Assembly (NCBI GenBank): GCA_015065965.1
Contig: SVPH01000013.1
Location: forward strand, 1 to 64,000
Length of the DNA: 64,000 nt
Source of the DNA: Oscillospiraceae bacterium
GTDB lineage: Bacteria > Bacillota > Clostridia > Oscillospirales > Acutalibacteraceae
Reading direction: 5' to 3'
The notes beneath the pieces were generated by a model. It saw nothing but the letters and a program-made list of their open reading frames with translations. It made no database searches and was not told the DNA's origin. Position numbers and translations under genes: made by a program. Shown here in pieces: positions 50,788-53,571 of this stretch (position 1 is the stretch's first letter; each line of letters opens with the position of its first letter).

Positions 50788-51459
50788 TTAAAAAGCATTT
50801 TCTTTTTCAACGTATTCTTTGAACTCGTTGAAAATGCGTTTGCCGATTGAACGGTAATCCATTGCAAGAACTTTTTCAATCTTTATCCTGCGGATTTCTT
50901 CGGGCACATTGTAAATTGTCATAATGGCATTCAACGCTCCCGAAATACGAGTTTCAAGCGGTACGGTTTTATCAATGGCATTCAGCGTTGCGTGTTCAAT
51001 GCCTGCAACAAGAATTTCCGCTTCTCTGAACTGCTCATCTGTCCAATCGGGACAGTATTCCGCAAAAACCTCTTTTGCACGGGCGGTATCATTGTTGTGG
51101 ATGATTTCAAGGCATTTCGGACTCTGATAAGTCGAAACGAAAAAGTCTTTCGCAACCTCGCTTTCTTCGCAAGCCGCCGCCATTGACATCAGTTCAAGGC
51201 ATATTGCAAGCAGATTGCTTATTCCGTCATCCGCTTCGTTCCTCATTAATTTCCATTGAAATTTGCAGAGAATTCCGACAAGTTCGGCAAGAATATCGTC
51301 TTTTGAATGAAAATGAAAGGTGAAATTGCCTTTGCTGATTCCAAGTTCGCTGCAAACGAACTGAATCGTAGTCGGAGTATAGCCGTTTTCAAGAAACATT
51401 CGGGTTGAAACACGGAGTATTTTATCTCTTGTATTTTCTTTTTTAACTGTTTGAGCCAT
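50788..51459 (-). CDS. TetR-family transcriptional regulator
   Basis: NTRDKILRVSTRMFLENGYTPTTIQFVCSELGISKGNFTFHFHSKDDILAELV; start refined to MAQTVKK with RBS aaggaggaa. Confidence 0.88.
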   Translation of the reverse strand: MAQTVKKENTRDKILRVSTRMFLENGYTPTTIQFVCSELGISKGNFTFHFHSKDDILAELVGILCKFQWKLMRNEADDGISNLLAICLELMSMAAACEESEVAKDFFVSTYQSPKCLEIIHNNDTARAKEVFAEYCPDWTDEQFREAEILVAGIEHATLNAIDKTVPLETRISGALNAIMTIYNVPEEIRRIKIEKVLAMDYRSIGKRIFNEFKEYVEKENAF

Positions 51460-51484
51460 TGTTCCTCCTTGAATTTTTTGAAAC

Positions 51485-51520
51485 TGCACATGTACTAATT
51501 CACAGTTTAGTACATGTGCA
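51485..51520. promoter_or_regulatory. Palindromic operator candidate for the TetR regulator, overlapping its promoter
   Basis: tgcacatgtactaa-ttcacagt-ttagtacatgtgca, 14-bp perfect arms, 26 bp upstream of the start; minus-strand TTGACA-17-TAAACT overlaps it. Confidence 0.7.
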
Positions 51521-51689: not shown

Positions 51690-51734
51690 TGGTCGGAGTG
51701 CAGAGTTTCGAACTCTGGGCCTCGTGGTCCCAAA
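51690..51734. repeat. Distal att-type repeat: exact copy of the 3' portion of tRNA-Pro
   Basis: tggtcggagtgcagagtttcgaactctgggcctcgtggtcccaaa, identical over 45 bp to 53496-53540. Confidence 0.93.
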
Positions 51735-51868
51735 TTTTAGTGGCGGATGTTTTCCGCCGTTTTTTATTGCAAAAATCAAGGAATATCAACAGTTTTTGTT
51801 CCAATGATGTCCACAGTTTTCCATAGATGTTTAGTCACTTTTTAGTCACTTGGCAATGTGTACCTATA

Positions 51869-53299
51869 TTATAATGTTCTGCTTGTGACTTCAACCTGAG
51901 TAATTACTTCTTTCAAAGTTTCTCCTGTAGCAAGTTTATAAGTCAGCAATTCATCTACGGTATCATATTCACGGTCGGTTTCGTTGTGTCCGACCTGACA
52001 TATTCCGACTTTGCCATTAAACCAGGTAATTGTATAATCAATATCTTTCCAGCAAAATTCAACTTCTGCGCCGCCGTTTATACACCATTTAAAATCGCTG
52101 ATTGTATCAAAATTATCACACGATGTAATGATGTTTATTTTTTCACCCGGATATTTCTTTTCTAATTCCTTTAATAACTCTTCACTTATATAACTCATAT
52201 CAATATCCTTTCTGAATTTGAATTCAGGAACATCAGATCCTTCCGGATAGTTTATTATCTGATGCTGAGGGTTAGGTTTTCCGGTAATGGGATCCCATGA
52301 GAATATATGGTCATGAGGATTGGTGTGATTTGTCCTATCATGAGTTGTATAGTGCCTTTCTTTTACAGCACGACCATCCTCACCTATTTTTGTTTCAGCA
52401 ATATATCCGCCTTTTTTACCGGGCATAGAAGTTCTTTTAATTTCTCCGGGTTTTCCTAAAAATCGCTCCGCCAATTCGTTTTTGGGTTGCCATTTTCCGC
52501 CATAAGCACTTCCCATGCCCTTAAAGCATTCCGGCATGACAAATCCATAAATTTGTTTCTTTTTTGAGTTTTCAGAAATACTGTTGTTTGTTATTGCTCC
52601 GAATTTTTCAACAAACACTGTATTTGCAGATTTACCAATGTCATCACCGTAATGCTGCCAAGAACTCAAATCATAGTCAACAAAAAGAATGTTACCTTCC
52701 ATTTCGGGGAACGGAGTGTTGTAACAGATAACCAACTCAGGTTCAATGCGTTTGAGCATTTCGTTGTAGCCTTTTAAGAAAAATTCCTTTTGGTCTTTGT
52801 GGCTTCCGTGTTCGGATACCATATAGGTTGAAACCGCAACTGTTGAACCTTTTTCAATACCATTAAAACAGAAATCAAATGTATTTTCAAGACCCCAACT
52901 TACAGTCGGAATAACTTTGATACCCTTTTCCGCAAGATATGCCCCGACCCAACGGTTTCTGAATGTGTTATACAACTGCATAACGGGATTCATTTCAATA
53001 TACATACTGTAATCGGGAGACAAAACCGCTTTGTATTTTTTGAGCATATCAATATATTTATCGGGTTTTGTCCATATATCCTCAAATTTATAATCATACA
53101 GGAAAAAGTGAACGATTCTTTCGTAATGTTCATCTTTTCCTGTTTTTATTTTGTCAAATCCAATCAGGCGTTGATCGTCAAAAGGAGTTAATCCCAAATC
53201 CACTTTTGAAATAACAGGTATATTCCATTTACCTTCACCTTTAAATTGATTCCGTAAAAACATAGGGCTTGTGCGATAGTTATAGTTCTCTTCTGTCAA
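51869..53299 (-). CDS. DUF4417-like protein with extra C-terminal module (mobile-element cargo)
   Basis: N-terminal DLGLTPFDDQRLIGFDKIK…YKAVLSPDYSMYIEMNPVMQLYNTFRNRWVGAYLAEKGIKVIPTVSWG; C-terminal GGKWQPKNELAERFLGKPGEIKRTSMPGKKGGYIAETKIGEDGRAVKERHYTTHDRTNHTNPHDHIFSWD…; TTG start with RBS ggaggt. Confidence 0.75.
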   Translation of the reverse strand: MTEENYNYRTSPMFLRNQFKGEGKWNIPVISKVDLGLTPFDDQRLIGFDKIKTGKDEHYERIVHFFLYDYKFEDIWTKPDKYIDMLKKYKAVLSPDYSMYIEMNPVMQLYNTFRNRWVGAYLAEKGIKVIPTVSWGLENTFDFCFNGIEKGSTVAVSTYMVSEHGSHKDQKEFFLKGYNEMLKRIEPELVICYNTPFPEMEGNILFVDYDLSSWQHYGDDIGKSANTVFVEKFGAITNNSISENSKKKQIYGFVMPECFKGMGSAYGGKWQPKNELAERFLGKPGEIKRTSMPGKKGGYIAETKIGEDGRAVKERHYTTHDRTNHTNPHDHIFSWDPITGKPNPQHQIINYPEGSDVPEFKFRKDIDMSYISEELLKELEKKYPGEKINIITSCDNFDTISDFKWCINGGAEVEFCWKDIDYTITWFNGKVGICQVGHNETDREYDTVDELLTYKLATGETLKEVITQVEVTSRTL

Positions 53300-53323
53300 T
53301 ATTTAACCTCCATAAATTAAAAA

Positions 53324-53347
53324 TGTAGCGAACGAATGTTCGCTACA
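53324..53347. promoter_or_regulatory. LexA/DinR-type SOS box (CGAACGAATGTTCG) within a 24-bp palindrome
   Basis: tgtagcgaac-gaat-gttcgctaca; core CGAAC-N4-GTTCG at 53329-53342. Confidence 0.85.
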
Positions 53348-53352
53348 AATGT

Positions 53353-53381
53353 ATTATAGAGAATAAATTCTATTTTGTTAA
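53353..53381 (-). promoter_or_regulatory. Sigma-A-type promoter of the DUF4417 gene
   Basis: Minus strand TTAACA (53381-53376) – 17 bp – TATAAT (53358-53353), immediately upstream of the SOS box. Confidence 0.75.
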
Positions 53382-53495
53382 GTGTTTTTCACCATTAGCG
53401 GTTATGTTTTGAAAAATATTAGTCACCTGTCTGAATTTCAAACAAAGAACTCCTTGCGTCAACGGCTGAAACCGTTGATATACAAGGAGTTTGAG

Positions 53496-53571
53496 TGGTC
53501 GGAGTGCAGAGTTTCGAACTCTGGGCCTCGTGGTCCCAAACCACGCGCGCTACCAGCTGCGCCACACCCCG
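53496..53571 (-). tRNA. tRNA-Pro (UGG), CCA encoded; its 3' part serves as the proximal att-type repeat
   Basis: RC: CGGGGTGTGGCGCAGCTGGTAGCGCGCGTGGTTTGGGACCACGAGGCCCAGAGTTCGAAACTCTGCACTCCGACCA; acceptor stem and T-arm pair. Confidence 0.96.

What the first reader, a model, noticed from the sequence alone, without database searches (positions are those of the whole stretch)
53324..53381. Perfect LexA/DinR SOS box at the promoter of the integrated element's cargo gene
Seen: minus-strand promoter TTAACA-17-TATAAT, followed at the presumed start site by CGAACGAATGTTCG inside a 24-bp perfect palindrome (tgtagcgaacgaatgttcgctaca). Then RBS ggaggt and a TTG start. CGAAC-N4-GTTCG is the established Gram-positive LexA/DinR operator. 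The position predicts repression until DNA damage. SOS control is expected for prophage induction or excision genes and for some defence or toxin modules, but I know of no described SOS-regulated single-gene DUF4417 element.
Basis: partly seen in the sequence, partly recalled or inferred. Interest (0 to 1): 0.78.

Follow-up and report, generated by a model that had tools for sequence, protein, structure and literature searches.

The report
DNA-damage-switched toxin-like gene on mini-element
A tiny mobile DNA element in a gut bacterium carries one gene, apparently a toxin fused to its own antidote, whose promoter holds the same DNA-damage (SOS/LexA) switch the host uses for recA and lexA, so the gene probably turns on when DNA is damaged.

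Summary
The SOS box is real. CGAACATTCGTTCG (53329-53342) is the only CGAACN4GTTCG in the 2.33-Mb genome. It lies 10 bp after the -10 of the only gene in a 1.8-kb element between 45-bp tRNA-Pro repeats. Correction: the 24-bp palindrome has perfect 10-bp arms but a non-palindromic centre (GAAT).

The host's lexA, recA, uvrB and DNA polymerase Y genes carry matching boxes. All six toxin-like DUF4417 genes found in the host genus carry one, with unrelated C-termini in some. None of 80 DUF4417 genes from viral contigs does. Induction is untested.

The cargo is more than "DUF4417": it is a DUF4417 domain, a toxin-like domain and an immunity-like domain. The last has its own ribosome-binding site and ATG in 30 of 42 relatives. 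Between sister species the DUF4417 half is nearly identical (dS 0.05), but the C-terminal half is saturated (dS ~2), implying cassette exchange as in polymorphic toxins.

The element lacks an integrase. Its tRNA-proximal end matches an integrase-bearing element at the same tRNA-Pro locus in a sister species, so it is probably mobilised in trans or stranded.

Best reading: a LexA-repressed toxin-immunity cassette on a non-autonomous tRNA-site element.

The parts
53329..53342 (-). SOS/LexA-type operator CGAACATTCGTTCG, inside 10-bp perfect inverted arms 53324-53333 / 53338-53347
   Evidence: same form as host lexA/recA/uvrB/polY boxes
53353..53381 (-). sigma-A-type promoter TTAACA-17-TATAAT (TTGACA in L034 and L035)
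53306..53311 (-). Shine-Dalgarno GGAGGT, 6 nt before the TTG start
51869..53299 (-). single ORF, 476 aa, TTG start: DUF4417 + toxin-like + immunity-like domains
52664..53299 (-). DUF4417 domain (aa 1-212); PF14386; AlphaFold2 model pLDDT 89, TIM-barrel-like
52214..52537 (-). toxin-like domain (aa 255-362), motif GRA..ERH.T.H.....H..PHDH...W; no Pfam name
51872..52198 (-). immunity-like C-terminal domain (aa 368-476; PHROG 3711) starting at a nested ATG (52196-52198)
52206..52210 (-). internal Shine-Dalgarno AAGGA, 7 nt before the nested ATG
   Evidence: family-wide test
53496..53571 (-). tRNA-Pro (UGG), integration target; its 3' part 53496-53540 is the tRNA-side att repeat
51690..51734 (.). 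distal att repeat, 45 bp identical to the tRNA 3' part
51829..51849 (-). distal arm-type direct repeats GTGACTAAAAAGTGACTAAAC, part of the conserved end module 51735-51868
53418..53427 (-). tRNA-proximal arm-type repeat GGTGACTAAT
   Evidence: same place and orientation next to the integrase in L119
53448..53491 (.). hairpin/terminator-like inverted repeat between tRNA and arm; same hairpin between tRNA-Pro and integrase in L119, similar one in L225

Best explanation
A 1.8-kb non-autonomous integrative element at tRNA-Pro(UGG) carries one LexA-repressed gene. Supported by sequence: an SOS operator just downstream of the -10 in a host whose lexA, recA, uvrB and polY carry the same kind of site; the operator kept upstream of toxin-bearing DUF4417 relatives; attachment arms at both ends but no integrase. 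Inferred: (1) LexA bound at the start site blocks transcription; DNA damage (RecA-induced LexA cleavage) relieves it. (2) Translation then gives a DUF4417-toxin-immunity fusion plus, from the nested start, free immunity protein. (3) The toxin-like domain, probably a nuclease-type effector, acts when separated from or not matched by the immunity part; the phage-type DUF4417 domain is the conserved carrier or targeting module. (4) The element excises and integrates only when a helper supplies an integrase of the kind seen at the same tRNA-Pro locus in sister genome G020.
For: SOS control: host LexA; host boxes lexA CAAACATTTGTTTG, recA AGAACATTTGTTTG, uvrB TGAACAAATGTTCT, polY CAAACAAATGTTCG; all 6 toxin-bearing DUF4417 genes of the genus have a box, chance per 200-nt upstream region ~0.6%; long-form genes 8/37 versus 0/80 viral-contig genes, Fisher 6e-5. 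Toxin-immunity: same domain order in many relatives, toxin-like domain in 33 of 300 family genomes; SD+ATG before the immunity domain in 30/42 fusions versus 10/273 other ATGs, p 1e-19; split forms with a separate immunity gene (L014, L255) and extra or orphan copies (L121-L124, L129, L241); swapped C-termini on the same DUF4417+SOS start: Ntox37-like in L127 (E 1e-4, below the curated cut-off), another in L126; dS 0.05 in DUF4417 versus ~2 in the C-terminal half against L034, dN/dS ~0.1-0.2. Non-autonomous element: att and arms; empty sites; shared integrase-proximal end in L119, PF00589.
Against: No experiment. No Pfam hit for the toxin-like domain, so catalysis is unproven. No signal peptide or known trafficking domain was recognised, so delivery is unknown. 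The toxin and immunity parts are fused in one chain, unusual for secreted toxins. Many relatives outside the genus lack a recognisable box. No homologue of the G020 integrase in the host assembly (86% complete) at E<=1e-20, so the element may be immobile.
Confidence: 0.6

Rival explanations
1. SOS-regulated, but DUF4417 is a phage-type enzyme or accessory factor (for example acting on DNA bases) for mobility, replication or interference with a helper phage; the C-terminal domains regulate it and are not a toxin and antidote.
For: DUF4417 is found mostly in phages (490 records), in part fused to ParB-CTPase folds (PMC12704722); the model resembles TIM barrels, best weakly to tRNA-guanine transglycosylase (E 0.02, TM 0.5); the DUF4417 half is the conserved part.
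Against: DUF4417 genes of viral contigs are mostly alone and lack the box; the SOS box goes with the C-terminal modules, which are exchanged, nested and duplicated like toxin/immunity cassettes. Fold similarity is below significance.
Confidence: 0.17
2. Decayed prophage or island end: a leftover att flank with one gene that happens to keep a prophage SOS promoter; no present function.
For: No integrase in the element; no helper found in the assembly; L034 has lost its distal att and L035 its tRNA side; lone end modules occur elsewhere beside other genes.
Against: The ORF is intact with dN/dS ~0.1 and shared by three species with promoter and most of both ends; recent cassette exchange; box kept in distant relatives.
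Confidence: 0.14
3. The palindrome is the operator of another repressor (such as the HTH-S24 repressor at G000:C34) or an RNA hairpin in the 5' leader.
For: The site next to that repressor, CGAACGAATGTTCA, matches this box at 13 of 14 bases including the centre; arms extend to 10 bp and could fold in RNA.
Against: L035, L127, L130 and L039 boxes (CGAACATTTGTTTG, AGAACATTTGTTCG) score like the host lexA/recA/polY boxes (18-19 bits); L130 and L039 keep the core but not the long arms; in L037 the box overlaps the -10.
Confidence: 0.08

Closest known systems
LexA-repressed colicin operons of Enterobacteriaceae (own knowledge; not compared here)
   Same: toxin gene with immunity, held off by LexA at the promoter, induced by DNA damage
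   Different: Gram-positive-type LexA box, no lysis gene or receptor-binding domains recognised, fused toxin-immunity with nested start, phage-type DUF4417 N-terminus, on an integrated element rather than a plasmid
Polymorphic toxin systems (Zhang et al. 2012, PMC3482391), including MuF phage-type carriers and Ntox37
   Same: conserved N-terminal carrier, exchangeable C-terminal domain, adjacent immunity genes, orphan immunity arrays
   Different: DUF4417 is not among the trafficking domains seen in the parts of that paper read here; SOS promoter; immunity encoded in frame inside the toxin gene
ParB-CTPase-DUF4417 phage proteins (PMC12704722; PHROG 940)
   Same: the DUF4417 domain
   Different: there fused to a ParB-like fold, no toxin or immunity domains, function unknown
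Hitcher elements: phage satellites, tycheposons, CALIN, MITE (review PMC11389934)
   Same: small cargo element depending on functions supplied by others
   Different: attP-like ends at a tRNA with one SOS-regulated gene and no integrase; satellites usually keep an integrase (own knowledge)
Clostridial LexA regulon (PMC4234289)
   Same: GAACN4GTTC/T operators at lexA, recA, uvrB
   Different: adds a mobile toxin-immunity-like cassette

Membership tests
Gram-positive LexA/SOS regulon | operator of the form CGAACN4GTTCG/GAACN4GTTY in the promoter | tested here: met
   box 10 bp after the -10; top matrix score in the window
Gram-positive LexA/SOS regulon | host LexA present and using the same operator at lexA and recA | tested here: met
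   LexA; boxes at lexA, recA, uvrB, polY
Gram-positive LexA/SOS regulon | LexA binding and damage induction | not testable with these tools
   needs EMSA and reporter or RNA data
Polymorphic toxin system | conserved N-terminal region with exchangeable C-terminal domains | tested here: met
Polymorphic toxin system | immunity gene next to the toxin | tested here: inconclusive
   immunity-like domain fused with nested start, separate gene in L014 and L255, orphan copies; immunity function itself is inferred
Polymorphic toxin system | recognised toxin domain | tested here: inconclusive
   none in the window protein; Ntox37 in relative L127 at E 1e-4, 23.2 bits, cut-off 27.8
Polymorphic toxin system | secretion or trafficking signature | tested here: not met
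   Pfam finds only DUF4417; signal peptides not run with a dedicated program
Autonomous tRNA-targeting integrative element | att direct repeats at a tRNA 3' end, arm-type repeats, empty site in relatives | tested here: met
Autonomous tRNA-targeting integrative element | own integrase | tested here: not met
   only one ORF of note in 1.8 kb; so non-autonomous at best

The most novel reading that the evidence does not exclude
A previously undescribed class of LexA-controlled, phage-domain-led (DUF4417) polymorphic toxins whose immunity protein is encoded in frame inside the toxin gene, spread in Oscillospirales by integrase-less tRNA-Pro elements that use helper integrases in trans and act as a damage-triggered intracellular defence or competition cassette.
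Probability: 0.35. Interest if true: 0.82.

Novelty: new variant of a known kind. Interest (0 to 1): 0.64.

Why it matters
It gives a testable first role for part of DUF4417, a family found in hundreds of phages with no known function: head module of a damage-induced toxin-immunity-like protein. If true, SOS-triggered toxin cassettes, known from colicins, also exist in gut Clostridia on elements so small that they carry one gene and borrow their integrase. The nested in-frame immunity start is a simple, checkable prediction.

Tried and rejected
Viral contigs with the whole protein: no relatives. Exact arm repeat in viral contigs: none. Short hits to the end module in G000:C44, G022:C17, G024 and G028 were coding-sequence coincidences or recombinase genes without att. 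PADLOC and NCBIfam: nothing useful. PDB by sequence: nothing. Full-length structure model is poor (pLDDT 69) and its matches meaningless; only the DUF4417-domain model was used. DUF4417 as the known phage DNA transglycosylase DpdA2: considered because of the fold hits, not adopted; the fold match is weak and no text or annotation found links the two. Rfam on the leader: nothing above chance. Reading the G022 and G008 gene blocks as cargo of complete elements: not adopted, because the tRNA in G022 is followed by its usual terminator and the G008 copy lacks the tRNA.

Full report
WHAT IS THERE. The box CGAACATTCGTTCG lies at 53329-53342 on the minus strand, 10 bp after TATAAT and 43 bp before a TTG start with GGAGGT. 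It is the only exact CGAACN4GTTCG in 2.33 Mb. The 24-bp inverted repeat has perfect 10-bp arms, but its centre GAAT is not palindromic. The gene (51869-53299, 476 aa) is the only notable ORF between two identical 45-bp copies of the 3' part of tRNA-Pro, 1806 bp apart.

IS IT A LEXA BOX. The host has a LexA with a good TIGR00498 score. Searching its genome with the palindromic core found sites just upstream of lexA, recA, uvrB and an impB/mucB-type DNA polymerase gene (identities confirmed). A matrix from these four scores the element's box at 15.9, the best in the window and equal to the uvrB site. Because about three such scores are expected in a random genome of this size, the score alone would be weak. 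The comparative evidence is stronger. In the host genus, all six DUF4417 genes that carry C-terminal modules (window; G011=L034; G008=L035; G017=L127; G033/G002=L126; G002=L130, the last cut by the contig end but closest to L127 in its DUF4417 part) have a box 29-44 bp upstream of the chosen start; so do L037 and L039 from other genera. In L126, L130, L037 and L039 the surrounding promoter has diverged and the core is kept. Of 80 DUF4417 loci from viral contigs, most of them stand-alone genes, none has one. Not all long-form genes in other genera have it (8 of about 37 counted by hand), so SOS control is a feature of a subset.

WHAT THE GENE ENCODES. Residues 1-212 are DUF4417 (PF14386, E 3e-55). 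Two further conserved domains follow: 255-362 with a His-rich motif GRA..ERH.TDH.....H..PHDH...W, and 368-476 matching PHROG 3711. Neither has a Pfam name. Four facts make the pair look like toxin and immunity. First, they are exchanged as a cassette: between the window and L034 dS is 0.05 in DUF4417 but about 2 in both C-terminal domains, all under purifying selection (dN/dS 0.08-0.17). Second, relatives with the same DUF4417+SOS start carry other C-termini: L127 ends in a match to Bacterial toxin 37 (Ntox37, E 1e-4, below its cut-off), L126 in another domain followed by a small CPCC-like gene and an immunity-like gene. Third, the last domain has its own translation start: a Shine-Dalgarno plus ATG in the linker in 30 of 42 fusions, against 10 of 273 other in-frame ATGs. 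Fourth, in L014 and L255 the toxin-like gene stops and the immunity-like domain is a separate gene, and extra or orphan copies lie nearby in several genomes. The toxin-like domain occurs in 33 of 300 genomes of the bacterial family, overwhelmingly behind DUF4417.

DUF4417 ITSELF. The only papers found mention it in passing; one reports fusions to ParB-CTPase folds enriched in prophages (PMC12704722). A 75-sequence AlphaFold2 model (pLDDT 89, pTM 0.87) looks TIM-barrel-like; the nearest solved folds are tRNA-guanine transglycosylases, at non-significant E 0.02 (viral library). This is a lead only.

HOW THE ELEMENT MOVES. The far end has paired repeats GTGACTAAAAAGTGACTAAAC about 95 bp from the 45-bp core; the tRNA end has one such repeat about 70 bp from the core. 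This is the layout of tyrosine-integrase attachment sites (inference). The end module recurs in five sister genomes beside other genes, including both sides of an AAA-ATPase gene in G020. In G020 the tRNA-Pro gene next to the same NUDIX-Maf genes as in the window is followed by the same hairpin and arm repeats, and then by a phage-type integrase (PF00589). G026 has a 49% identical integrase followed by arm repeats, a similar hairpin and the start of a tRNA-like sequence at the contig end. So the window element has the integrase-side end of such elements with the SOS-DUF4417 gene in place of the integrase. Uninterrupted tRNA sites continuing across the junction exist in G002, G034 and G039. No homologue of this integrase was found in the host assembly, which is 86% complete. 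Loss of att in L034 and of the tRNA side in L035 shows that some copies are stranded.

SHOWN AND INFERRED. Sequence-level facts: operator, host regulon, conservation, domain order, nested starts, module exchange, att layout, missing integrase. Inferred: LexA binding and induction; that the domains are a toxin and its antidote; the target; mobilisation in trans. Nothing here was tested at the bench.

VERDICT. The cargo is probably a LexA-repressed toxin-immunity cassette. It works like a colicin-type or polymorphic toxin operon, but I do not file it as a member of either: no delivery signature was found and the toxin domain is unnamed.

Noticed in passing
G000:C13:5290-5301 (L058) and G000:C37:101584-101595 (L072): Two similar host promoters with TTGACA-SOS box-TATAGT, each followed by a similar leader sequence; no coding gene close downstream in L058. 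Rfam gave no credible family. Possibly SOS-controlled RNAs.
   Followed up: partly
G000:C34 (L003, 1501-2826): HTH-S24 (CI-like) repressor divergent from a sigma/HTH gene, with CGAACGAATGTTCA between -35 and -10: 13 of 14 bases as the element's box.
   Followed up: partly
G000:C50:4356-4369 (L050): SOS-type box CGAACATATGTTTG between a small gene next to a tyrosine-integrase-like ORF and a DUF6076 gene: likely another integrated element under SOS control.
   Followed up: partly
G000:C11:49019-49030 (L057): Palindrome AGAACATTTGTTCT 33 bp upstream of a 139-aa protein with a sigma-70 region 4-like end: candidate SOS-controlled regulator.
   Followed up: no
L098:5500-7720 (G020:C29): Two copies of the element end module about 2 kb apart flank a single AAA_21/AAA_15 ATPase gene (defence-like), suggesting other single-gene cargoes at the same kind of site.
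   Followed up: partly
G097:C1:1197000-1314000; G331:C24:1100-4500: Dispersed and tandem copies of toxin-like/immunity-like fragments, resembling orphan immunity arrays.
   Followed up: partly
window 51485-51520: Perfect 14-bp inverted repeat TGCACATGTACTAA/TTAGTACATGTGCA upstream of a TetR-family gene (50788-51489), probably its own operator.
   Followed up: no
L131:4386-5768 (G110:C36): A DUF4417-toxin-immunity gene directly upstream of phage tail genes, without a recognised SOS box.
   Followed up: no
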